Source: Chitinophagaceae bacterium
GTDB taxonomy: Bacteria; Bacteroidota; Bacteroidia; Chitinophagales; Chitinophagaceae
Length of the DNA stretch: 64,000 nt
Direction: 5' to 3'
Assembly: GCA_019638595.1 (NCBI GenBank)
Contig: JAHBTJ010000009.1
Coordinates: 62,001 to 126,000, forward strand
The notes below the pieces were generated by a model. It was not told the origin of the DNA. It ran no database searches and saw only the letters and a program-made list of their open reading frames with translations. Below, piece by piece: positions 5,255 through 50,230 of this stretch (position 1 is its first letter; the number at the start of each line of letters is the position of its first letter). A program made the translations under genes and the position numbers.

Positions 5255-6406
5255 TCATTTAATGATTTCCCGGGTGGCCGCGGGTAAAAAAATGCGTGAG
5301 GGCATAGCCTTTAGTATTTTAATTTCTTCCGCAGGCAGGGTTTCGTTATCAAGGAATTTAAAAATCAGCCATGCGGGAACACGCTGAAACAATCGCATGA
5401 AAATATCACTGCCTGTCATTTTTTTCCGGGTAAGCACATTCAGTAATATACTATCGTATAAATAAAACCGGGCGGGCGGCTTATTGCTGACAGCCATATT
5501 GTTGCTGCCATTCACTATCGCTGAAGCAAGCTGCGCCGCCTGCTTTTGTATGAACCGGAATGTATATCCTGTAGACGGTTTGGTTTGCCCGCCGGCAGTT
5601 CCTATAAAAAAGATACCGTTTTTGTATAGCGGGAAGCGATGATTGGTCATGGGAATTACGCCAAACTCTGTATGCGTTATGGAATAGTCCTGTACGCCCA
5701 GTTCGTTTTGAATATATTCCTTCAATGCAGTATCGTATTCCTCCTGTGGCAAAACAGCTTCAGAAAATACAGTGTACTCAACCAGCGCTTCCGTGGCCGA
5801 TAGCGGCAACATGTAAGCAAAAGCCGCGGGATGGTTTTTTTGATCAACGGAAAAATCCATGAGCAAGGCCTGTTGCAGATTAAATATTTCCGTACGTGTT
5901 TTTATAAGCCAGCCTTTGAAATGCTGCAGCAGGTAATATTTGCCGCTATTTTTTGCAGGCGCCTGAAAAACGGAACTGAATACAAACCCGGCTTCCGCTT
6001 CCAGCACTCCCGAATTGGTTGTTATAGTAATATGCCCATTGCGATTATTAATCTCCAAAACATCCCGCTGTATATATTCTATATTACCAGCCGAAACGAT
6101 CCGTTTGAAACAATACTCATAAAAATCTATTCCCCGGATCATTTTATATACGTAGCTATTTAGGTCAAGCGATTGCCTCAGCGATCTGTTTTTTACAACC
6201 AGATCAGTCCAGCGTTTATACACAATGCTTTCAAAGTACCCGTTTTCTTTTTCCCAGAAGCACCAGGTACGGTCGTTGTTTTCTTTTTTCTCTTTATCAA
6301 TAAGCAGCACTTTCTTTACAGAAAAGCCGGGGTCGTTCATGAACTGCATAAGCAGGCTCAACCCTGCGCAACCTGCGCCAATGATTATATAGTCATACTT
6401 TTTCAC
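5255..6406 (-). CDS. crtY: Lycopene beta-cyclase, CrtY type
   Basis: A flavoprotein that closes the beta-ionone ring at an end of lycopene or gamma-carotene-type substrates. The N-terminal Rossmann dinucleotide motif is clear (DYIIIGAGCAGLSLL, 4-18), followed by the family block DRTWCFWE. The C-terminal half carries the typical GTAGGQTKPSTGYTF stretch. At 383 residues it is the normal length. Its start overlaps the stop of the cruF-like gene by four bases (ATGA), so the two are translationally coupled. With cruF and the crtD-like desaturase nearby it probably makes the ring of a monocyclic carotenoid with one hydroxylated acyclic end. Confidence 0.9.
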   Translation of the reverse strand: MKKYDYIIIGAGCAGLSLLMQFMNDPGFSVKKVLLIDKEKKENNDRTWCFWEKENGYFESIVYKRWTDLVVKNRSLRQSLDLNSYVYKMIRGIDFYEYCFKRIVSAGNIEYIQRDVLEINNRNGHITITTNSGVLEAEAGFVFSSVFQAPAKNSGKYYLLQHFKGWLIKTRTEIFNLQQALLMDFSVDQKNHPAAFAYMLPLSATEALVEYTVFSEAVLPQEEYDTALKEYIQNELGVQDYSITHTEFGVIPMTNHRFPLYKNGIFFIGTAGGQTKPSTGYTFRFIQKQAAQLASAIVNGSNNMAVSNKPPARFYLYDSILLNVLTRKKMTGSDIFMRLFQRVPAWLIFKFLDNETLPAEEIKILKAMPSRIFLPAATREIIK

Positions 6407-7101
6407 GCCGGTAAAAATGTTCGTAACACAAGAAAGAACATAAACTGGATGAGCAGCAGGTATACCGCAAATACATTTGCCTTATTAAACCGAAGCAGGG
6501 AAAAGATGAACATCAGCAAAACGCTTACAGCAAACCAGGTAATATAATTGAGTAAGGGAATAGTTCCGTCCTCCCATTGCCAAAAGTTTAAAGCAACAGC
6601 TACAGGCTCCATGATCCAATCAAAAAGAACAGCCAGCAATGCTCCGTCTATCACAATGGAAGCCCTGCTCCACCGGGTGAACGAAGACAGAGCCCCCGGC
6701 TCAAGCCGGCTCCTGATCTTTTGCTGAAGCAGGTTCATGGCAGTGCCGCAGCAGTATATTACTACAAACCAGTTGATACCGATCAGCGCCGGCACAGATT
6801 TTACTTTAGGCCCCAGGCTGCTTCCATAGCTATAGTTACCGAAAAGCACACCTGAGCGCACGCCGGCTGCTTCTGCCCAAAATCCAACGGCGTAGCAAAT
6901 CAGTGCAAAAAAATAAAAGGTCGTGTTTTTCTGCTCCTGTGTCCAGCAGACTAATACAAGCATTACCAGCATATTCAGGGAAGTAAGCGAAGCGAATGCT
7001 GCTGTATCTATCCACAATATACCTGCTAAGCCAACAACATGAAAAAGTATCGCAATAAAGGTGGCGATCCTGTATTTGTTTGTTATGATCTTCTTCCACA
7101 T
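6403..7101 (-). CDS. cruF: Carotenoid 1,2-hydratase-like membrane protein (CruF family)
   Basis: A 232-residue integral membrane protein with six or seven hydrophobic segments and no cleavable signal. It belongs to the carotenoid biosynthesis family that includes CruF and archaeal bisanhydrobacterioruberin hydratase (COG2324). Recognisable stretches are the FGNYSYGSSLGP loop, the LIGINW segment and the DWIMEPVAVALNFW segment. Family members add water to the psi end of carotenes to give a 1-hydroxy group. It overlaps crtY by four bases and both are on the minus strand. The assignment rests on overall resemblance and neighbours; the substrate is inferred. Confidence 0.8.
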   Translation of the reverse strand: MWKKIITNKYRIATFIAILFHVVGLAGILWIDTAAFASLTSLNMLVMLVLVCWTQEQKNTTFYFFALICYAVGFWAEAAGVRSGVLFGNYSYGSSLGPKVKSVPALIGINWFVVIYCCGTAMNLLQQKIRSRLEPGALSSFTRWSRASIVIDGALLAVLFDWIMEPVAVALNFWQWEDGTIPLLNYITWFAVSVLLMFIFSLLRFNKANVFAVYLLLIQFMFFLVLRTFLPA

Positions 7102-7178
7102 GTAAAAAGTGAAATTACTAAAAACAGGCCTTTAAAAAATGATGGTTAGTTTGTATATTCAGGGATACAATCACCTAT

Positions 7179-7622
7179 ATGCGTTTTATTTTACTGGCTG
7201 TTTTTATATATACAGGATTGATTGCTTATGCTCAAAATAAAGAGATGCTGGATTTTGGGCAATTTAAAGTGAAAGCGGATTCGCTTTCGCGTATAACAGA
7301 CACTCACATCCATTTGCTTTATAAGAAAGATATTACAGGTATGCTTGATGATTATCAATTCAGGGGACAGGTATACCTGAACACAGCAACCAATGAAATC
7401 TACAAAGCATCTTACAAGGAAGATACAGGGGAGGAAACGGGCTCATACCGGTTATTCTATTACTATAAAAATAACCTTGTTAAAATGGTAGTATCAGATT
7501 CCGCCTACTATCCTTTCAATGGGAAGATTCTTAACTCAAAGGGCGGTATAACTAATGAAATTTTTTCCGGCAATATGCTCAGGTTTGAAAGCAATTGCCG
7601 GAAACTGGTGCTTACACTATAA
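7179..7622 (+). CDS. Exported protein of unknown function
   Basis: A 147-residue protein with a cleavable signal peptide (MRFILLAVFIYTGLIAYAQ), predicted periplasmic. The mature part is beta-rich with repeated Tyr/Lys phrases (YRLFYYYKNN, YYPFNGK). I do not recognise a family. It runs opposite to the carotenoid genes and splits crtD from cruF/crtY, so a carotenoid role is not implied. It converges with the crtD-like gene, the two stops being only 8 bases apart. Confidence 0.7.
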   Translation: MRFILLAVFIYTGLIAYAQNKEMLDFGQFKVKADSLSRITDTHIHLLYKKDITGMLDDYQFRGQVYLNTATNEIYKASYKEDTGEETGSYRLFYYYKNNLVKMVVSDSAYYPFNGKILNSKGGITNEIFSGNMLRFESNCRKLVLTL

Positions 7623-7630
7623 TATTTACT

Positions 7631-9115
7631 TTAGTGAAAAGACTTCGTGTTACGTATGATCTCTCCCATAATTTTCGCACTCTTCAGACAAAGTGGTATA
7701 CCGCCGCCGGGATGAACAGTGCCGCCGCAGAAATACAGCCCGCTGATCTCTTTACTGAAATTAGGATGCCGGAAAAAAGCGCCTGATCCTGAGTTGGAGC
7801 TCATTCCGTATATGGCGCCGCCTGCTGCGCCGGTACCGGCTTCTATTGCGGAAGGATCCAGGATCATTTCCGTTTCAATGCAAGGTTCAACATCTTCCTT
7901 TAACATTCCCCGGAGCTTTTTTAAAACCTGTTGCTTTGCATAAGCGGTTAATTCCTGCCAGTTGTTTTTGCTGCCCGAAGGAACATTAACCATTACAAAC
8001 CAGTTTTCTTTTCCCGCAGGGGCATGGCCTGCTTCCATTTTAGATGTTATGTTGATATAGATGGTAGGATCTTTATAAACGGTTTGGGTCTTAAACAAAC
8101 TTTCAAATTCCGCTTTATACTCGCTGCTGAAAAATATATTGTGTAATTGCAATTGGGGAAACTGTTTGTTGATGCCCCAGTAAAATACGATAGCGCTGCT
8201 GCTTTTTTCGTACTTCTCAATTTTCTGTGCGGTACGTTCATCGTTCAGCAGCTTTTGGTATGTAAAGTAGATATCTGTATTACTTACTACAAGATCTGAA
8301 AAAAAATTTTCACCGTTAATAACAATGCCCCGGACCTTGTTTTCTACACAAATAATCCTGTCTGCAGAAGTATTAAAAACAAACTGTACTCCTTTTTTTA
8401 CAGCCAGCCTGTACAGCGCATTGGTAATGCTGATCATTCCGCCTTTTGGATAATATACGCCCCCGTTAAGCTCTGTATGCGGAATAATGCTGAGCATAGC
8501 CGGCGCGGAATAAGGACTGGAACCATTATAGGTTGCGAAGCGGTTGAATAACTGTATGGCTTCGCCCGTTTTAAGCTTTGCCTGGTTGTATTCATTTAAA
8601 GTATTGTACAGCATGTATGGGCGTACAGCGCTCAATGCTTTAAGAAAGGAGCGTTTGAACCAGGTTTTCCGTTTCTGCAACGGATTATTTAAAAATACGG
8701 TGCCGATAGAATGATATAATTCTTCTGCCTGGTTAAGATATACTGTTACTGTTTCCCGGGGTTCGCCCAGTTTTTCAGTGAACTCAGCCAGCAGCCTGTC
8801 GCGGTCCGTCCAGCTATGAAACAGTTTTCCGTTTGCGAAAAAATATTTGCAACCGCATTCAACTTTGCTGTAAGAAATATATTCATCAATAGGTTCTCCG
8901 GCATAATCAAATAAAGCCTCCAGCTCAGCGGGGTCGGTAAAAAGAGAAGGCCCTGCGTCGAAACTGTAACCCTCTTTTTCTGTTAACGAAAGCTTACCGC
9001 CGGGATAGCCATTCTTTTCGTAAACGGTAACCGAAAAGCCCTGAACAGCCAGTCGTATAGCTGCAGCTATCCCGGCTACGCCGCTTCCTATTATAATTGC
9101 CGACCGTGATTTCAT
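7631..9115 (-). CDS. crtD: CrtI/CrtD-family carotenoid desaturase, probably 1-hydroxycarotenoid 3,4-desaturase
   Basis: A 494-residue FAD-dependent desaturase. The N-terminal FAD motif (AIIIGSGVAGIAAAIRL, 6-22), the PGGKLS block and the FDAGPSLF block are characteristic of the CrtI superfamily. The C-terminal FAD-binding signature is FCGGTVHPGGGIPLCL near 458-473. CrtI (phytoene desaturase) and CrtD (3,4-desaturation of 1-hydroxy ends) are hard to tell apart by eye. I prefer CrtD because crtB is absent next to it while a CruF-type hydratase and CrtY are close by, the trio needed for saproxanthin-, myxol- or flexixanthin-type pigments. The superfamily call is firm; the substrate is inferred. 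Confidence 0.85.
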   Translation of the reverse strand: MKSRSAIIIGSGVAGIAAAIRLAVQGFSVTVYEKNGYPGGKLSLTEKEGYSFDAGPSLFTDPAELEALFDYAGEPIDEYISYSKVECGCKYFFANGKLFHSWTDRDRLLAEFTEKLGEPRETVTVYLNQAEELYHSIGTVFLNNPLQKRKTWFKRSFLKALSAVRPYMLYNTLNEYNQAKLKTGEAIQLFNRFATYNGSSPYSAPAMLSIIPHTELNGGVYYPKGGMISITNALYRLAVKKGVQFVFNTSADRIICVENKVRGIVINGENFFSDLVVSNTDIYFTYQKLLNDERTAQKIEKYEKSSSAIVFYWGINKQFPQLQLHNIFFSSEYKAEFESLFKTQTVYKDPTIYINITSKMEAGHAPAGKENWFVMVNVPSGSKNNWQELTAYAKQQVLKKLRGMLKEDVEPCIETEMILDPSAIEAGTGAAGGAIYGMSSNSGSGAFFRHPNFSKEISGLYFCGGTVHPGGGIPLCLKSAKIMGEIIRNTKSFH

Positions 9116-11686: not shown

Positions 11687-12880
11687 TTACTTTACTCTAT
11701 TTCTTCTATATATCCTCCCTGTTATATTAGATTTCAGAAAGTTAAATAGCATGAAATAAAATAACACTGGAATAAAAAAATTTTTTAAGTTTTCGAGTGA
11801 GAGATATTTTACATTATGATGTAAATCTATCATAAAATGGTAAAAATTTATGGGTAAATAGATAATTGAATTCAAATGATAAAATGTGGCATAGAAAATA
11901 AAAAAAAGTGCAGTACAAATATTTCCCAAAGCATAAATACAAAGAAGTATATTCAATTTTGTGAACGCAAACAACTTTCTTTTATAGATAGATTGCACTA
12001 ATTCTTTTAATGTTCTATTGGCTTGTTGATGAAGATTAGGAATATTTAGAAAATCAACTAATATCCAATAGCCATCACTTCTAATAAATGGCAATAAATT
12101 AAATAATGCTTTTAAAAATATTCCATATACTATTATAGCTATACCTATTCTGTCAATCAGAATACTGATCAATAGGAAAATGGTGCAGATTATCATTTCA
12201 AAATAGACTCCCGCTATATTAACAATAATTCTTTGCTTATAAGGCAATTTCCATATATCAGAAATATCTGCAAAATATACTGGAGACAACAGATAAAAAC
12301 CACCTCCTATTCCGTTCTGTTCTGCACCGAAATACTCTGCAGCGGTTACATGCCCCAACTCATGAAAGGTGATACTTATGAATCCTAGTACTAAAAAGAG
12401 TACTATGTCGCCATTAAAATTATATGATATAAGTAATTGACGACACTTTAAAAAAACAATAAAGGAAATGGTGAGAAATAATATAAAAGAAATAAGAAAA
12501 GAGGCGGGATTAAATAAAAATTTAAGAGGCGGGATTATTTTTGAAATAATCCTTTTATTAATGAATATAAAGCTAAGTTTTAAATAACTTGGGTTCGAAT
12601 CCTTTTTGATCTTAGCTAACGAATTTTTAATAATACCAAATGACCCTAACTTGTCAAATAAAAGTTCATATATAAAATCTATCGAGACATCTTTTTCATA
12701 TTTTTTTGTCAAGAAACTAATGTTTCTTTTTCCATCAATCATCAATAATAACAAATAAACCTCAGAAGAGACTTTTAATCTATGATTGTATTGAGTTTGA
12801 TGTACTAAGTATGTGTTTTCTGAAAATTGGGAGATTTTTACATCTTCATTGATTTCAGGAATCATTTCACCTTTTTCCAT
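11687..12880 (-). CDS. M50-type membrane zinc protease with N-terminal PqqD-like domain
   Basis: A 397-residue membrane protein. Residues about 14-90 look like a PqqD-type winged-helix domain (SSEVYLLLLMIDGKRNI), the fold that binds leader peptides of ribosomally made, modified peptides (an RRE). Several membrane segments follow. The zinc site HELGH is at 173-177, and the second M50 motif NLLPFIRSDGYW gives N261 and the third metal ligand D269. The SPVYFADISDIWKLP block is typical of the COG1994-like branch found in peptide maturation loci. All catalytic residues are present. It overlaps the terpenoid-enzyme fusion gene by 14 bases, so the two are coupled. The likely job is leader removal or maturation and export of the peptide encoded at 16084-16239. 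Codons are very A/T-rich compared with rplK next door. Confidence 0.8.
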   Translation of the reverse strand: MEKGEMIPEINEDVKISQFSENTYLVHQTQYNHRLKVSSEVYLLLLMIDGKRNISFLTKKYEKDVSIDFIYELLFDKLGSFGIIKNSLAKIKKDSNPSYLKLSFIFINKRIISKIIPPLKFLFNPASFLISFILFLTISFIVFLKCRQLLISYNFNGDIVLFLVLGFISITFHELGHVTAAEYFGAEQNGIGGGFYLLSPVYFADISDIWKLPYKQRIIVNIAGVYFEMIICTIFLLISILIDRIGIAIIVYGIFLKALFNLLPFIRSDGYWILVDFLNIPNLHQQANRTLKELVQSIYKRKLFAFTKLNILLCIYALGNICTALFFIFYATFYHLNSIIYLPINFYHFMIDLHHNVKYLSLENLKNFFIPVLFYFMLFNFLKSNITGRIYRRNRVK

Positions 12881-14753
12881 AGAGTTCTAAGGAGTTTAAA
12901 ACTGTTGAAGTTGTGAAAAGGCGGTTGAACTCTCTTGATCTAATATTAACTCCCAAACGACCAACCTCTCTGACTTTATTTTCGATTATATTTTCATCGG
13001 GATTGGGAATTAGGAGTGCATTTGAATTTTCCCATGAACCATCATCGAATTGAGCGCTATTTATATACGCCACACATTTTTCTATGTTGTCTAAATATTT
13101 TCTGGGCGATAATAAAAGTATTTCTAATGCTAACCCAGTATAAAATAAATTTTCTCCATAGTTATCACTAAAACTCCCATTATTATTTTGTATTTCAAGT
13201 AGAAATGAAACTATTTCTGATAACTTTGCAAATTCTTTTATGAATTTGTAAGTAAGTGCCAAATAATAATATGTGTAAATATTGCTAGTCCACCAGTAGG
13301 CTTTAATATTCTTGGGGTCATTAAAATACGCATATAACTTACGAAATTCTTTATTATACTTTTTAAGTAACGCCAGATTATAAAACGCAACAGCACTAAC
13401 ACAACCGTGCCCATTACACCATCCTTTGACATTGGATATTTGCGGATCATTTAAACTTGATAATAGCTCTTTTTCATTATTGTATGTTGAAAAACTACCA
13501 TTCTCATTTTGAAAGTTTAACCAGTTTTTATACGAGAGTCCCTCCATTTCAGAGCATTGAAGTTGAAAAGCAAGGATTGAAAGACTGGTTGAATCCGCAT
13601 CGCAAATCCACGTAGAGTTATAACCCCATAAATCAATAGCACTTACATTTCTATTTAAAAATTGCAACGCTTTTTTTATAGAAAAACTCGGGAAACTTTT
13701 TTTATCCAACTTAGTAGTAATGAATGCAGTTGCCCAAATATCGCTTATACCCCCCTGATTTGAGTATTCATGCCAACTTCCGTCATCGTTTTGCCTTGTA
13801 AGTATGAATTTTTTTGCAATTTTTATTTGTGTTGAATATGGCATTTGCTTTTTCGTTATTGAAAGGTAAATTCCTGAAGAAAGAAATTCCAAGTAATCAT
13901 TTATTTCTCTGATTGCTTTTAGAAAAGTCGATTTCGTCGAGAAAAGGTGTTCCTTCCAAAGAGGGAGGTTAATTGTATTTATTTCATCCAATGCAGAATC
14001 CAAATAAGAAATTCCAATTCTAAATAGCTCTGCTGCATAACCCTTTATATAAAATATCTTATTTGCTTCATCAATACTTAACCCCGAATGTTTTTTTGAT
14101 AGATTGTAGTACGCGAAGTTAAATTGGCCATTTTCATAATCTTCTTTGATATCTTTTATATCATCATAGATTTGGTAAGCTATTGAAAAAGAACGGTGTG
14201 ACTTTAATATCTTCTCATACGTAATTGAATTCTTTTTTTCTGAAAGGACATATAATGCGTCTACTGCAATCTTGCCCAACGCAGATTTAAGATCAGCCAA
14301 TAATTCAAATTCCGAAGTTTCAACTATATTGGAAGAAATCATCCTTTTTTCGATGCTTATTCCTTTAATGTATTCATTCTTCCGCTCATTCCATAGAGAC
14401 CAAAAAAATGAATCTCTTCCAAAATGCGAGGTAAGTATCTTGATTGTCTCTTCTTGACAAACCGATATTGTCAGAAAATCATCTTTCCTTTTTTCGTCAA
14501 TAAAGCTATCAGTTAAAAGCGTAGCTTCATAATACAGATAACCGGCAATACATAAATCGTCTATCACTCTTTCTTCAACAGAAAATTCATCTGAAAATAA
14601 CTTAGGGTAAAAGAAGTAAAAAGAAGGATTTTGATTTAGAAAAACATCACTTAAAATTTTATTACGAATCGAGTCGGGAATTGCTAGTCCTTCAACGTAA
14701 TTTTGAAACAAATCACGATACGTATTAGTGTAGGTGTTATTTGCCTGGTTCAT
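12867..14753 (-). CDS. Fusion of polyprenyl-synthase-like domain and terpene-cyclase-like toroid domain
   Basis: A 628-residue two-domain protein. Residues 1-295 resemble the all-helical isoprenoid synthase fold: a first Asp motif DSFID (82-86, where prenyl synthases have DDxxD) and an intact second motif DDIKD (197-201). Residues 300-628 resemble the class II terpene cyclase/protein-prenyltransferase alpha-toroid. QW-type repeats are seen at 321-327 (QNDDGSW), 415-421, 522-528 and 568-574 (QFDDGSW), and DADSTS at 385-390 lies where class II cyclases have DxDD. The middle Asp of that motif, the proton donor in known enzymes, is kept. No signal peptide is present. It lies in one operon with a precursor-like peptide and a PqqD-M50 protease. 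It could prenylate and cyclise on the peptide, or make a free terpene. The domain calls are from motifs; substrate and product are unknown. Confidence 0.75.
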   Translation of the reverse strand: MNQANNTYTNTYRDLFQNYVEGLAIPDSIRNKILSDVFLNQNPSFYFFYPKLFSDEFSVEERVIDDLCIAGYLYYEATLLTDSFIDEKRKDDFLTISVCQEETIKILTSHFGRDSFFWSLWNERKNEYIKGISIEKRMISSNIVETSEFELLADLKSALGKIAVDALYVLSEKKNSITYEKILKSHRSFSIAYQIYDDIKDIKEDYENGQFNFAYYNLSKKHSGLSIDEANKIFYIKGYAAELFRIGISYLDSALDEINTINLPLWKEHLFSTKSTFLKAIREINDYLEFLSSGIYLSITKKQMPYSTQIKIAKKFILTRQNDDGSWHEYSNQGGISDIWATAFITTKLDKKSFPSFSIKKALQFLNRNVSAIDLWGYNSTWICDADSTSLSILAFQLQCSEMEGLSYKNWLNFQNENGSFSTYNNEKELLSSLNDPQISNVKGWCNGHGCVSAVAFYNLALLKKYNKEFRKLYAYFNDPKNIKAYWWTSNIYTYYYLALTYKFIKEFAKLSEIVSFLLEIQNNNGSFSDNYGENLFYTGLALEILLLSPRKYLDNIEKCVAYINSAQFDDGSWENSNALLIPNPDENIIENKVREVGRLGVNIRSREFNRLFTTSTVLNSLELYGKR

Positions 14754-14859
14754 ACTAATTTATTTCTTCGGTAGTCATTAACTCGTTAATGATAAGTTTG
14801 TGTTAACTCTTAATTATTAGGATTCGGTAAAAAAGTTAAGTGACAAAAAACGAGCTTTT

Positions 14860-16026
14860 TTACTTCACAAACTCAATTTCTTCTTTTGACAAGCTGATAG
14901 TATTGAAATTGTTTTTGTGACTGGGTACTGCTTTATATATTGGAACTGTATAGTCAAGTGGAGTTCCCTCAAATGCCCCGGACTTTGCTTCTTTTGTTAT
15001 GTATAACGTGGTTTCCGAATCACTATCTATTATTTGATGTTGTAAATAAGTTGTTGCCAAAATTGACATAGATGCATAAGACAATGAATATTTAACAGGA
15101 TCCACCCTGTTTTCAAAAACTAATTTCAGAGATATTTTTTGGGTATTGCTTTTATAAGATAATTTATAATCAGGATTATACCCTTGTGTTGAATAGTTGG
15201 ATAACAATACATCAACATTAAAAAAAACGATTGCGCCAGACTTGATATCAAAATCGCACTCGCCGGAAAATTTAGCAACAGCTTCTTTGCGTTTTGGTAT
15301 TTTAAATTCATTTGTTTCAAAATTTACCTTCAACGCCGTCTCAGATTTTGTTGTATTTAACAACGATATCTTTGTATTCTTAACAATACTTTCTAAGATA
15401 AAATTCAGGTATAACCTACTTAAAAAATCTTCCAAAGCAATCCCAATGTTTGCGCCACTTGTAGAAATAATCCCGGTATTTCTAAAAGCTTTTATATTTT
15501 TTAAATCAATTTTACAAAATTTACTTATAGGCGAATTAAAATTAAATGATAAATCAGGGCTCCACCAATCAACCTCAGCTACCATCAATCGTGTAAGCGT
15601 ATCGTGTGATCTTATTGTTTCCTTATATGTGCCTTGGCGTAATACGGGATAATCTACATATAGTTGATTGTAATTCTTCAATATGTAGCTAAACTTTTTA
15701 TTCAGATCCAAATTTGAAATGATTACCTCGGGCATTGAATATACTATTGGAACAAGATATATGGTATCAGTATTTTTATCATTTGCCGGCAATTCCTTTC
15801 TGTAATAATTCACATGGCTAAACCTGAACAAATTATTGGTAGTAGTTAAATTTAATGTAGCAAAACCATCTTTATTAGTAGCTGTTCCTTCATGTCCATT
15901 TGAACTTACAATATTTACGTGCTCAATTGGGGTATGCGCCAGGCTATCCAAAACAATAAAGTGATATTGGGCTATGCCTGTTAAGGGAAACCCTAAAATA
16001 AATAAGAAAACAAAATTTTTTTTCAT
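14860..16026 (-). CDS. Exported protein with carboxypeptidase-regulatory-like domain
   Basis: A 388-residue protein with a clear signal peptide (MKKNFVFLFILGFPLTGIAQ). Residues about 21-100 look like the carboxypeptidase D regulatory-like beta-sandwich that begins many Bacteroidota outer-membrane proteins (PIEHVNIVSSNGHEGTATNKDGF). The rest is beta-rich, with no plug or barrel signature and no zinc-peptidase motif, somewhat like the DUF5686/peptidase-associated secreted proteins. It lies between the 51-residue peptide gene (57 bases upstream) and the prenyl/terpene fusion gene (106 bases downstream), all on the minus strand. It may bind, receive or help export the modified peptide across the envelope. 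That role is inferred from position only. Confidence 0.7.
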   Translation of the reverse strand: MKKNFVFLFILGFPLTGIAQYHFIVLDSLAHTPIEHVNIVSSNGHEGTATNKDGFATLNLTTTNNLFRFSHVNYYRKELPANDKNTDTIYLVPIVYSMPEVIISNLDLNKKFSYILKNYNQLYVDYPVLRQGTYKETIRSHDTLTRLMVAEVDWWSPDLSFNFNSPISKFCKIDLKNIKAFRNTGIISTSGANIGIALEDFLSRLYLNFILESIVKNTKISLLNTTKSETALKVNFETNEFKIPKRKEAVAKFSGECDFDIKSGAIVFFNVDVLLSNYSTQGYNPDYKLSYKSNTQKISLKLVFENRVDPVKYSLSYASMSILATTYLQHQIIDSDSETTLYITKEAKSGAFEGTPLDYTVPIYKAVPSHKNNFNTISLSKEEIEFVK

Positions 16027-16083
16027 AATAGATAGAGATAGGAGTAAAGCATTACCTTACTCCTATTACTTTGGTGATGGAAA

Positions 16084-16239
16084 CTAGATTTTAATACCAA
16101 CGCCTACGCCATCTCCACCACGTTCTTTGTGAAGCCAGCCCATCTCAAACCTCTTTTCTAATTCTTCTACTTTAAAGCTCTCCAGAAGCTTTTCGTCCGT
16201 CACTCTTTTTTCTTCCTTTTTTTCTGCTTTGTTTTCCAT
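16084..16239 (-). CDS. Putative RiPP precursor peptide, 51 residues
   Basis: A small minus-strand gene: ATG at 16239, TAG at 16084-16086. The peptide has a Lys/Glu-rich N-terminus (1-16), a predicted amphipathic helix with the phrase FKVEELEKRFEMGW (22-35), one Trp (W35), and a Gly/Val-rich tail GGDGVGVGIKI (41-51). It has no Cys and no signal peptide. This leader-plus-core look, an A-rich upstream stretch like other starts in the window, and the position at the head of an operon with a PqqD-domain protease argue for a ribosomally made, modified peptide precursor. W35 is a candidate prenylation site by analogy with ComX. Cleavage site and modification are not visible in the sequence. Confidence 0.75.
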   Translation of the reverse strand: MENKAEKKEEKRVTDEKLLESFKVEELEKRFEMGWLHKERGGDGVGVGIKI

Positions 16240-16870
16240 GTTTAAAATTTAAAACTTGCCTTTCTTTCGCCTCGGCAATTTTTCAGCGTCACGCAGTATT
16301 CCCGCTCCCGTGAACTCGGGTTTCATTTTATATATTATTTATTGTTCCTTCTTAGAGTATTTTAAACCTGATTTCCCTCTTTTCTTTCAATTAGGTATTC
16401 AGTTTCTTTCTTAAGCCTGTAATTGTCGCATTACAGATTGTGAGGTGGGGTTAATTCGTGGAATTTATATTAAGATAACTATGAAATGATCTATACCTCC
16501 CCAATTGTATAAGAACAAATAAAAACTGCTTATTTTTAGGGGGAGCTATATTCTTAGTTTCTAAACACTACTTTCCTTTGTAGAAATATAATGTGACGAA
16601 AAATTAGGTAATAACTTCAGTTGAGGTAAAAAAGAATGTGTTTTCATGCTATTATCTTTTGGTGTTCAAAATTTGAAAGGTTAATGCAATGTAAGAACTA
16701 TGTTATGCATTAAGCAAAAAAATATTTTAAAGCAACTTTATGAAATTCCGAAAGGAAATATAAAAACCTATTATTGTTGTTATCCTTCCGTTGATCAATG
16801 CAACCGCAGGCGGCTCTATTGCAACACCTGAAAGTGCTATGAACGGACAGGTATTTTATCTTCTTAACAG
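16240..16870. other. Non-coding stretch upstream of the peptide cassette
   Basis: No convincing gene is seen. It must contain the promoter of the minus-strand cassette, but I could not find a TAnnTTTG match in the right orientation. A short G+C-rich patch at 16261-16320 (33 of 60 bases G+C) stands out from the A+T-rich surroundings. It holds a 25-codon minus-strand open frame (16249-16326) rich in Arg/Lys near its end, which may be a relic or chance. TGTAAT/ATTACA (16423-16440) is a small hairpin. Confidence 0.4.
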
Positions 16871-17045
16871 ATGGAAATGAACCAACGATTTCAAATCATA
16901 TTCTTAGATGAAGCTTTTGAGTTCTTACAAAATTTGGAGCGAAAACATTATGAAAAAATACTTTAGAACATTCGTAAAGCACAAGCAGGAAACGACTCGA
17001 ACTTTTTAAAATGCTAACTGATGATATTGGGGAAACAATATTTTA
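16871..17045 (+). pseudogene. Broken HigB/Gp49-like toxin gene
   Basis: The frame from ATG 16871 begins like the phage Gp49/HigB-type RNase toxins (NQRFQIIFLDEAFEFLQNL). It is cut by an in-frame TAG at 16964-16966, continues recognisably (NIRKAQAGNDSNFLK), then needs a frame change to read KMLTDDI near 17009-17029, where the family has K-L-x-x-x-I-W-E-F-R. The remaining roughly 60 codons, including the rest of the catalytic half, are missing. It directly precedes an intact XRE antitoxin gene in the usual toxin-first order. Family assignment is from pattern only. Confidence 0.65.
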
Positions 17046-17070
17046 AGGAGAAATTTAAGGAGAAGAAAAA

Positions 17071-17361
17071 ATGAAAACATATACATTAAATGAAGTCCAG
17101 GATAAGCTTATCGGAAAAATCGGTACACCGGAACGTGATCGGTTTGAGTACGAACTTCAGATGGATATGATAGGAAAAGCTATCAGGCAAACACGTCATG
17201 AGCGTAATCTGACACAAGAAGAATTAGGAAAATTAATAGGCGTTCAGAAAGCGCAAATTTCAAGGCTTGAAAACAATGCCGGCAATGTAACAATGGATAC
17301 ACTATTAAAAGTGTTTACAGCCTTAAAAGCAAAAGTGAAATTGCAGGTAGAGTTCTCATGA
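17071..17361 (+). CDS. XRE-family HTH antitoxin, orphaned
   Basis: A 96-residue DNA-binding protein. The Cro/C1-type helix-turn-helix spans about 33-88: AIRQTRHERNLTQEELGKL, then VQKAQISRLENN. This architecture is typical of HigA-like antitoxins that neutralise Gp49-type toxins and repress their own operon. A strong GGAG ribosome-binding region (aaggagaag) precedes the ATG. The toxin gene upstream is broken, so this is probably an orphan that still acts as a DNA-binding repressor. It marks the outer edge of the A+T-rich insertion. Confidence 0.85.
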   Translation: MKTYTLNEVQDKLIGKIGTPERDRFEYELQMDMIGKAIRQTRHERNLTQEELGKLIGVQKAQISRLENNAGNVTMDTLLKVFTALKAKVKLQVEFS

Positions 17362-48554: not shown

Positions 48555-49601
48555 CTAAGCGAAATTCAATTTTGAACCATGCTCTTTAATTCGTTTTAAT
48601 GCTATTTCAACGTGCTCCTTATCAATTAATTCGCTTTTCCTTTTATTCCAATCTTTGATTTTTTGCAAGAGTTCATCACTATTTAATTGGGGGTTTTCTT
48701 CTAATAAATAATGAATAGAAGATAGTATTTCTAAGGAAAGGGCAGATTCGAAGCCATCAATAAACTCAAAAACATTTTTTAAACGTGCATGCTGTTCGGG
48801 GTTTAGATTTTTTCTCATATATTCTTGTACTTCTTCTAATCTATCATAATTCAACTGTAAAGGCTCAAATGCCCTGGCACTCATTTGTTCCATCCCGTGT
48901 ATATATTTATTTCGTAGACTATATAATACTTTATCAACTGCTTGTGCATATGGGCCATAAGTATATGGCACGAATTGTAGTTTCAAATTTTCGCCACTTT
49001 TTTGAAGAAAATAAGCAAGTTTATTCGCGACAAAAACACTCGCAACTTCACCAAGTCTTTCATATTTAAAAAGAGCGTAGAGCAACATCGCTCTCCCAGG
49101 TTTAAGTTCTATATCCCTTTGATTTTGTTCCTGCAAAATTTTCTTTACAGCATCACTGGGTTCATATATTTCAATATCTACTCCTTTTAAATCCCCAAGA
49201 TACTTCTCCATAAGTATTTTAACATTATCCCATTTCAATCCCCCATTTCCGCTCCCAAGAGGTGGAATTGCAATACTTTTTATTTTGTATTCTTCAATAA
49301 CTCTTTTTAAATCTTTTAATCCCTCTTCAATATAATTATATTGAGATTTTTTAAACCATTCAGTTTTAGTGGGGAAATTAATGATAGTCTTTTCTCCATA
49401 CATACTATTCTCCTTAACGATAAGCATTTTTCCTATTTCTACCCTTTTAGCTTTGCATTCTGAAGCATATATCTTAAAATTTACCGGAAATCGCTCTTTG
49501 AATTGTAATGCAATACCTTTACCCATTACTCCAACGGTATTCACTGTGTTAACCAATGCATCTGCATTGGAATCTAATAAATTGCCAATAACATACTTCA
49601 T
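48555..49601 (-). CDS. darG: DarG-type macro-domain antitoxin (DNA ADP-ribosyl glycohydrolase)
   Basis: A 348-residue antitoxin. The N-terminal macro domain (about 1-155) has the ADP-ribose-binding pattern DALVNTVNTVGVMGKGIA and IPPLGSGNGGL plus the NFPTKTEWF block found in DarG. The C-terminal part (about 165-348) is the helical region that, in known DarG proteins, binds and blocks DarT. It removes ADP-ribose from thymidine in DNA. It overlaps the darT stop by four bases on the same strand, toxin first. Its A+T-rich codons suggest transfer. Confidence 0.92.
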   Translation of the reverse strand: MKYVIGNLLDSNADALVNTVNTVGVMGKGIALQFKERFPVNFKIYASECKAKRVEIGKMLIVKENSMYGEKTIINFPTKTEWFKKSQYNYIEEGLKDLKRVIEEYKIKSIAIPPLGSGNGGLKWDNVKILMEKYLGDLKGVDIEIYEPSDAVKKILQEQNQRDIELKPGRAMLLYALFKYERLGEVASVFVANKLAYFLQKSGENLKLQFVPYTYGPYAQAVDKVLYSLRNKYIHGMEQMSARAFEPLQLNYDRLEEVQEYMRKNLNPEQHARLKNVFEFIDGFESALSLEILSSIHYLLEENPQLNSDELLQKIKDWNKRKSELIDKEHVEIALKRIKEHGSKLNFA

Positions 49602-50230
49602 TCAAAATAATATTGAGGATTAAAGGTTACAGGAATATCAATTCTTTTTTGCTTCAAGATACCTTCAACTTCCATCTTTTTATCTTTATTTAATACAACA
49701 ATTCTTTTAATAAGACTAATTGGAACATGACCTTTCACTAAAAATTCCGCGTGCTTTTTTCTTATAGTATCCCTGTCTCTCGAAAAATCCCGCGTGTTAA
49801 TAGCCTTCCAATCTATATTTGTCTTAATCTGGTTTAACTCTGTATAAAATTTAGATATTTCCTTAGCCGCGTTTCCATCCGTATAACACCACTGATAATT
49901 TTCAGTAGCCAAATCAGATATCCTATAACATAGATAAACAATATTTTCTTGTGGATATTTAGGGACTCCCCAACCTGTTTTAATATTAAACAGCATGGGT
50001 GTTCTTACCGAAAAGTAAAATGGCACATAATCATTTACGTACGTATCCGGGTAGCATTTTACCACAGCCCTGCCTCTTTGTTCTATAACTTCTCTATTAC
50101 CAATAGAAACAAATATCGCAGGATCAATAGTTTTATCATTTTTACAAAAAATACCATGCTCAAGAATAGCCTCCAAATTCGTTAATGGAATAATTCTGTA
50201 CAATTCCAATGTTGCGATGTTTACAGGCAT
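49598..50230 (-). CDS. darT: DarT-type DNA thymidine ADP-ribosyltransferase toxin
   Basis: A 210-residue toxin (DUF4433 family) that ADP-ribosylates thymidine in single-stranded DNA using NAD+. Family marks are LYRIIPLTNLEAILEHGI at the N-terminus, DYVPFYFSVRTPML in the middle, and KKHAEFLVKGHVP, where E162 fits the catalytic glutamate. It looks complete. It is coupled to darG by a four-base overlap. DarTG systems protect against phage as well as acting as toxin-antitoxin pairs. Divergent from chrA with a 200-base A+T-rich gap. Confidence 0.92.
   Translation of the reverse strand: MPVNIATLELYRIIPLTNLEAILEHGIFCKNDKTIDPAIFVSIGNREVIEQRGRAVVKCYPDTYVNDYVPFYFSVRTPMLFNIKTGWGVPKYPQENIVYLCYRISDLATENYQWCYTDGNAAKEISKFYTELNQIKTNIDWKAINTRDFSRDRDTIRKKHAEFLVKGHVPISLIKRIVVLNKDKKMEVEGILKQKRIDIPVTFNPQYYFE

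What the first reader, a model, noticed from the sequence alone, without database searches (positions are those of the whole stretch)
11687..16239. Peptide plus terpenoid-enzyme cassette: a candidate new RiPP class
Seen: four same-strand genes encoding a 51-residue precursor-like peptide, an exported regulatory-domain protein, a prenyl-synthase/terpene-cyclase-like fusion, and an M50 protease with a PqqD-like leader-binding domain. The last two overlap by 14 bases. Known: PqqD-like domains (RREs) bind leaders of ribosomally made modified peptides, and ComQ (polyprenyl-synthase fold) prenylates Trp in ComX. Inferred: the peptide is prenylated, perhaps cyclised as a terpene, then trimmed by the protease. 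I know of no described Bacteroidota system with this gene set.
Basis: partly seen in the sequence, partly recalled or inferred. Interest (0 to 1): 0.93.

Follow-up and report, generated by a model that had tools for sequence, protein, structure and literature searches.

The report
Gene cluster for terpene-decorated tryptophan peptides
This four-gene bacterial cluster is predicted to make a small peptide with a ring-shaped terpene attached to one tryptophan; the chemistry is of a kind first reported in 2024, and related clusters, nearly all with a matching membrane protease, turn up across the Bacteroidota phylum.

The parts
16084..16239 (-). Precursor peptide, 51 aa: conserved leader (FKVEELEKRFEM, residues 22-33) and short Gly-rich core with the predicted acceptor Trp35 (codon at 16135-16137)
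   Evidence: family-wide leader motif and Trp; only match in the genome with this query at E <= 10
14860..16026 (-). 388-aa protein, exported by its signal-like start, with an N-terminal CarboxypepD_reg-like domain; role unknown (perhaps export, reception or self-protection)
   Evidence: a homologue on the same strand within 5 kb of 32 of 53 full-length fusions; in L022 the homologue is an 812-aa protein with OMP_b-brl_3 and TonB-receptor matches
13869..14753 (-). Fusion, residues 1-295: trans-isoprenyl-diphosphate-synthase-like P domain with FARM D82xxxD86, Q194 and SARM D197-D198-xx-D201, plus D205
12867..13847 (-). Fusion, residues 303-628: MstE-like monodomain class II terpene cyclase C domain with DxDS motif D385/D387, H449-x-C451 and W487-W488
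12617..12880 (-). M50 protein, residues 1-88: predicted RRE (PqqD-like) leader-binding domain, b3-a3 fold
11687..12559 (-). M50 protein, residues 108-397: membrane metalloprotease with H173-E-x-x-H177 and D269

Best explanation
The cassette most likely makes a ribosomal peptide (RiPP) whose core tryptophan, Trp35, would first be prenylated by the N-terminal domain of the 628-residue fusion enzyme, after which the C-terminal domain would cyclise the prenyl chain into a fused-ring terpenoid. The likely donor is C15 or C20 (farnesyl or geranylgeranyl diphosphate); carotenoid genes at 5255-9115 make a geranylgeranyl pool plausible. The P domain probably uses FARM (D82, D86) to bind the prenyl diphosphate, and the SARM region (D197-D201) with Q194 to hold the indole. 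The C domain probably protonates the distal alkene with D387, the counterpart of MstE D109. The RRE of the M50 protease probably binds the FxVEELExRxE leader, and its HExxH site would then cut the lipid-anchored precursor near the ELExRxEM/W junction. The CarboxypepD_reg protein may help the product cross or be sensed at the outer membrane. Shown here: gene anatomy, domain identities by profile and predicted fold, conserved catalytic residues, the nearly invariant Trp, and co-localisation across the phylum. Inferred: every chemical step, the donor, the cleavage site and the biological role.
Against: No product, expression or enzyme assay. ChrPC's own sequence and the 2024 paper were not available, so direct homology is untested. 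Exceptions exist. L029 and the held-out L076 lack the Trp near the leader (it lies 3rd from the C-terminus), and their enzymes lack the Gln. L030 lacks the Gln but keeps the Trp. L084 has a P-domain-only ORF and two precursors with Tyr where Trp is expected. P-only genes (L031, L084) show that cyclisation is not universal. The RRE is seen by fold only: Pfam PqqD matches 2 of 34 members (best E 0.0011, not the window protein) and Foldseek E-values for RRE chains start at 0.07. The first peptide model and profile A3 included the Trp column, which favours Trp-bearing hits; the leader-only model was built from the same peptides. Gene calls were simple ORF calls, so some peptide starts are uncertain.
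Confidence: 0.85

Rival explanations
1. The fusion makes a free terpenoid (a prenyl diphosphate elongated and cyclised, as in drimenyl-type synthases), and the peptide is an unrelated small protein or a separate RiPP matured by the M50 protease.
Against: A peptide of one family accompanies 48 of 53 fusions and its core Trp is nearly fixed while the rest of the core varies. The Gln upstream of SARM that the review ties to Trp prenyltransferases is in 51 of 53. The closest fold, MstE, was solved with prenylated dihydroxybenzoate, an aromatic that already carries its prenyl chain.
Confidence: 0.07
2. Trp35 is prenylated but the product stays linear or only closes to a ComX-like pyrroloindoline; the cyclase domain is structural or inactive in this member.
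For: P-domain-only versions exist (L031, L084), and in L005 the two domains are separate ORFs. ComQ, without a cyclase domain, prenylates Trp with ring closure at the indole (PMC5331326 passages).
Against: D385/D387 are in 53 of 53 full-length fusions, with W487 and Y493 also in all 53. The window's C domain keeps the MstE-type H-x-C and YWW elements.
Confidence: 0.08
3. The M50 protein is not the leader protease but has another role, such as removing membrane-stuck product or immunity, and another protease matures the peptide.
For: The nearest named M50 families (daptide protease, YydH/LiaK) are known here by family name only, and the window protein scores well under both cut-offs (113 of 300 and 72 of 225 bits). 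No cleavage motif is obvious.
Against: Its model carries an RRE-like fold, the gene lies within 5 kb of all 53 full-length fusions, and similar M50 genes lie near LExRLE peptides or YcaO/nitroreductase genes in other loci.
Confidence: 0.15

Closest known systems
ChrPC pathway (Hubrich et al. 2024, Chem 10:3224; seen only through review PMC13290415, section 9 and passages)
   Same: Trans-IDS-like P domain plus a cyclase C domain; acts on an internal Trp of a ribosomal peptide with C10-C20 donors, then cyclises the prenyl group.
   Different: Sequence not held here. If, as the name suggests, ChrPC is from Chryseobacterium (inference), it may belong to the DxDD cyclase clade (L041 and 11 others), separate at 100/100 support from the DxDS/T clade holding the window. 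Whether the published cluster has an M50-RRE protease I could not check.
NctPC (same paper, same review, passages of section 8)
   Same: Prenyltransferase plus cyclase fusion, the cyclase said to resemble MstE; C20 on Trp, then cyclisation.
   Different: Its prenyltransferase is of the ABBA barrel fold, not the isoprenyl-synthase fold found here.
ComQ-ComX of Bacillus
   Same: Enzyme related to isoprenyl diphosphate synthases that prenylates an invariant Trp in an otherwise variable peptide (PMC5331326 passages).
   Different: No cyclase domain; in ComX the Trp is 3rd or 4th from the C-terminus, here it is 17th from the end; ComX has no obvious leader motif for ComQ, here the leader is the most conserved part besides the Trp.
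PalQ of Paenibacillus alvei
   Same: Isoprenyl-synthase-superfamily Trp prenyltransferase of a RiPP (PMC10853753 passages).
   Different: C-terminal Trp, NHLP-type leader, and a three-gene cluster (kinase, precursor, prenyltransferase) without M50 or cyclase.
MstE (Scytonema), monodomain class II terpene cyclase
   Same: C-domain fold, DxD acid and H-x-C/YWW elements; solved with an aromatic that already carries a prenyl chain.
   Different: MstE is a stand-alone enzyme acting on prenylated dihydroxybenzoate.
Daptide protease (NF041824) and YydH/LiaK epipeptide protease (NF058609)
   Same: Membrane metalloproteases of RiPP clusters; the two named families that match the M50 protein in NCBIfam.
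   Different: 113 of 300 and 72 of 225 bits: not members by the curated cut-offs.

Membership tests
Ribosomal peptides with cyclised isoprenoids (ChrPC type) | One enzyme joining a trans-IDS-like P domain and a terpene cyclase C domain (the review states resemblance to MstE for NctPC) | tested here: met
Ribosomal peptides with cyclised isoprenoids (ChrPC type) | FARM and SARM with conserved Gln just upstream of SARM | tested here: met
   D82/D86, Q194, D197/D198/D201 in the window protein and in 51-53 of 53 full-length fusions; criterion from PMC13290415 section 9
Ribosomal peptides with cyclised isoprenoids (ChrPC type) | Neighbouring precursor with an internal Trp | tested here: met
   Trp35 of 51; 90 of 91 family peptides
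Ribosomal peptides with cyclised isoprenoids (ChrPC type) | Trp carries a prenyl group that is cyclised in the product | not testable with these tools
   needs expression and NMR
Ribosomal peptides with cyclised isoprenoids (ChrPC type) | Sequence homology to ChrPC itself | not tested
   sequence and primary paper not held
ComQ-ComX pheromone system | Trp 3rd or 4th from the C-terminus | tested here: not met
   Trp35 is 17th from the end; the L029 and L076 peptides do have their Trp 3rd from the end
ComQ-ComX pheromone system | Prenyltransferase without a cyclase domain | tested here: not met
   fusion
MstE-like monodomain class II cyclases | Fold and catalytic Asp (D109 of MstE) | tested here: met
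RRE (PqqD-like) domain | b3-a3 winged-helix fold at the N-terminus | tested here: met
RRE (PqqD-like) domain | Sequence match to Pfam PqqD | tested here: inconclusive
   2 of 34 members at E <= 1, best 0.0011; not the window protein
M50 site-2 metalloproteases | HExxH and distal Asp | tested here: met
   H173, E174, H177, D269 invariant in 34 sequences; folds RseP/SpoIVFB/S2P; Pfam M50 26.7 bits, just under its cut-off of 27.2
Daptide protease NF041824 | Score above curated cut-off | tested here: not met
   113.2 of 300 bits

The most novel reading that the evidence does not exclude
In Bacteroidota the ELExRLE leader and the RRE-M50 intramembrane protease form a shared chassis for lipid-tailed ribosomal peptides. 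The lipid enzyme is swapped: a terpenoid P-C fusion, a P domain alone, or a lipid A-acyltransferase-like enzyme, with or without a radical SAM enzyme. The lipid anchors the precursor in the membrane, where the RRE protease cuts it. Within the terpenoid branch, one clade that lost the Trp-recognition Gln has moved its acceptor site.
Probability: 0.4. Interest if true: 0.75.

Novelty: new member of a known kind. Interest (0 to 1): 0.5.

Why it matters
It places an unannotated cassette in a young RiPP class whose enzymes attach and cyclise terpenes on peptides. It also gives a simple recipe for finding more members: the leader motif FxVEELExRxE followed by Trp, beside a P-C fusion and an RRE-M50 gene. 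In a sample of 395 Bacteroidota genomes 11 have the fusion family (one with the C domain only), and 1,040 peptide clusters match the precursor profile at E <= 10 (120 of them inspected). The natural variants (P domain only, DxDD cyclases, loss of the Trp-recognition Gln with a shifted Trp, Cys-pair cores next to MauE genes) make substrate recognition and cyclisation directly testable. If the leader-protease chassis is shared with acylated peptides, it would explain why an intramembrane protease is the leader peptidase.

Tried and rejected
Close relatives of the fusion in viral contigs: 1 stretch matched a pattern but it does not encode a relative. A LanC-like reading of the C domain (the GWCNGHGC stretch looks like a LanC zinc motif, from memory) was dropped: profile and fold point to MstE, which carries the similar stretch GWCGAHTCVS. 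A protein-farnesyltransferase-like reading was dropped: such chains appear only at Foldseek E about 4e-4 or weaker with TM about 0.5, below the cyclases. Membership of the daptide protease family was rejected on score. The primary 2024 paper is not held. Its content is known to me only from review PMC13290415 (section 9 read whole; part 1 of 4 of the reference list; passages elsewhere) and from memory of its abstract. Literature searches (10 of 10 used): judged by titles and abstract starts, no listed paper describes the M50-RRE gene or this leader family with the fusion. Most subscription journals are missing, so this is not evidence of absence. Other papers were seen only as search listings or as passages (PMC10853753, PMC12715784, PMC5331326). 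C-domain-only matches (L002, L056-L060, L081) and other partial fusions (L005, L023, L031, L048, and a 325-aa hit in L013) were not counted among the 53 full-length fusions. Of the M50 places, 10 lower-scoring ones (L101-L109, L111; mostly in proteins of over 500 aa) were not looked at.
Full report
The four minus-strand genes are at the stated coordinates, and the fusion and M50 genes overlap by 14 bases. With the peptide as query, only the peptide itself is found in the 7.06-Mb genome, and the fusion is single-copy there. None of 11 same-genus genomes has the fusion (2 of 98 genomes matched, the window's own and one weak C-domain-only hit). The cassette has GC 0.309 against a window median of 0.426, the lowest of 238 windows. 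In a tree of 59 fusions the window protein is sister to six Flavobacterium proteins (100/98). Together these suggest horizontal acquisition (inference).

Neighbourhoods. A scan of one genome per species returned 58 loci. By record title 52 are Bacteroidota; the other six are L019 and L050 (full-length fusions on MAG contigs titled Zambryskibacteria and Algicola), L057-L059 (archaeal MAGs) and L060 (Massilia), the last four with weak C-domain hits only. These loci, L002 and the window were searched with models of each gene (L001, a copy of the window region, was left out of counts). Of 53 full-length fusions, 53 have an M50 homologue on the same strand within 5 kb (43 abut or overlap it within 60 bp), 48 have a precursor peptide within 5 kb, and 32 have a CarboxypepD_reg homologue. 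The five without a peptide are L025, L027, L037 and L039 (contigs of 3.6-4.6 kb) and L049 (9.9 kb held upstream, 1.2 kb downstream). In an even sample of 395 Bacteroidota genomes 11 have the fusion family (G140 with the C domain only), and 21 have an M50 of this family at E <= 1e-20. All 11 M50 places above 220 bits lie in fusion-bearing genomes: nine beside the fusion, one on another contig (G109:C9), and one a second M50 (G472:C102).

Precursors. The 91 peptides in 48 loci share F-x-V-E-E-L-E-x-R-x-E, with some variation, and then diverge. A Trp follows within 12 residues in 90 of 91, also with a leader-only model. Aligned on the Trp, the core positions on both sides have more than 3 bits of entropy. 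Twenty of 48 loci carry two to six precursors. In the large protein database 1,040 proteins match at E <= 10 (only 7,993 candidates were scored). All 120 listed have the Trp, 107 of them with a C-terminus not in my loci. The profile contained the Trp column, so this list leans towards it. Of these 9, 7 have the M50 gene in the stretch held (not L077, L081), and 8 have a precursor (6 by model, L083 and L084 by eye; none in L081). Of those 8, 6 have the Trp; L076 has it only third from the C-terminus and L084 has Tyr in its place.

Results that do not fit simply. The enzymes of L029, L030 and L076 have Ser, Thr and Cys in place of Q194 and group together (99/89; two of them are long branches, so the grouping is not certain). 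Two of the three (L029, L076) have precursors whose only Trp is third from the C-terminus, as can be the case in ComX, while L030 keeps the usual Trp. L084 and L031 encode the P domain alone. Twelve fusions (8 of 53, plus four held-out) have a DxDD motif and another active-site pattern and form a separate clade (100/100). The window belongs to the DxDS/T clade.

Wider pattern. The window's genome has a second, unlinked M50 gene of this family (L085, G000:C23) beside a 41-aa peptide with LEQLEERLEM but no Trp, and a protein weakly like lipid A acyltransferases (19.1 bits, cut-off 22.3). Of 7 M50 loci examined without a fusion beside them (L085, L112-L117), 5 have an LExRLE peptide within 1.5 kb of the protease (L085 and L113 are close homologues, so four independent cases at most). 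Elsewhere this pattern occurs in 2 of 8,521 small ORFs not labelled as precursors, one of those being a real precursor. The leader-model E-values of these peptides are mostly weak (0.0003 in L116, 0.026 to 0.9 elsewhere). Partner enzymes are lipid A-acyltransferase-like in L085, L113 and L116 (all below Pfam's cut-off), radical SAM in L114 and L116, and aromatic amino acid lyase plus a ketosynthase in L112; a 327-aa partner in L114 has no Pfam match and no meaningful PDB match. L115 (YcaO and nitroreductase) and L117 (contig end) have no such peptide. Separately, all 12 fusion loci with a MauE-type gene or M50-MauE fusion have at least one core with two or more Cys, against 9 of 36 without it (Fisher p 4e-6, not corrected for relatedness; by peptide 34 of 39 against 12 of 52), which suggests disulfides in those products. 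The window's core has no Cys, and no such gene was found near it.

Comparison with the known. ChrPC and NctPC (Hubrich et al. 2024, Chem 10:3224) join prenyltransferase and cyclase domains. ChrPC has a trans-IDS-like P domain and modifies an internal Trp with C10-C20 donors, and its C domain facilitates cyclisation of the prenyl group (PMC13290415 section 9 and passages of section 8). The primary paper is not held; from memory, its abstract says such pathways occur in diverse bacteria and involve cyclised geranylgeranyl groups. The window cassette meets every defining feature of that kind that I could test. I therefore file it as a new member of a known kind, not a new class.

Verdict. The remaining interest lies in the breadth of the family, its natural variants and the possible shared chassis with acylated peptides.

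Noticed in passing
L085 4582-7047 (G000:C23, same genome as the window): Second M50 gene of the same family beside a 41-aa peptide with the LEERLEM leader motif but no Trp, and a lipid A-acyltransferase-like gene; relaxase and TraG-type genes lie next to it, so it may ride on a mobile element.
   Followed up: partly
L029, L030, L076: Group of fusions without the Gln upstream of SARM; in two of three the only precursor Trp sits third from the C-terminus.
   Followed up: partly
L084 21-830 and 3271-4221: P-domain-only ORF with two Cys-rich precursors that have Tyr where the Trp is expected.
   Followed up: no
L004 8394-19064, L005 8403-19028: Two cassettes in tandem with different precursors and different cyclase types (DxDS and DxDD); in L005 the first enzyme is in two ORFs.
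   Followed up: no
window 48555-50230: DarT-like ssDNA ADP-ribosyltransferase toxin gene with an adjacent macro-domain gene (DarTG-like pair).
   Followed up: partly
window 5255-9115: Carotenoid genes (lycopene cyclase, CruF-like, CrtD), a likely sign of a geranylgeranyl diphosphate pool.
   Followed up: partly
window 16860-17361: HTH antitoxin-like gene preceded by a short ORF that ends early at a stop and looks, by eye, like the start of a toxin of a toxin-antitoxin pair.
   Followed up: no
L115 5980-9169: M50 gene of the same family beside YcaO and nitroreductase genes, so this protease type is not tied to terpenoid peptides.
   Followed up: partly
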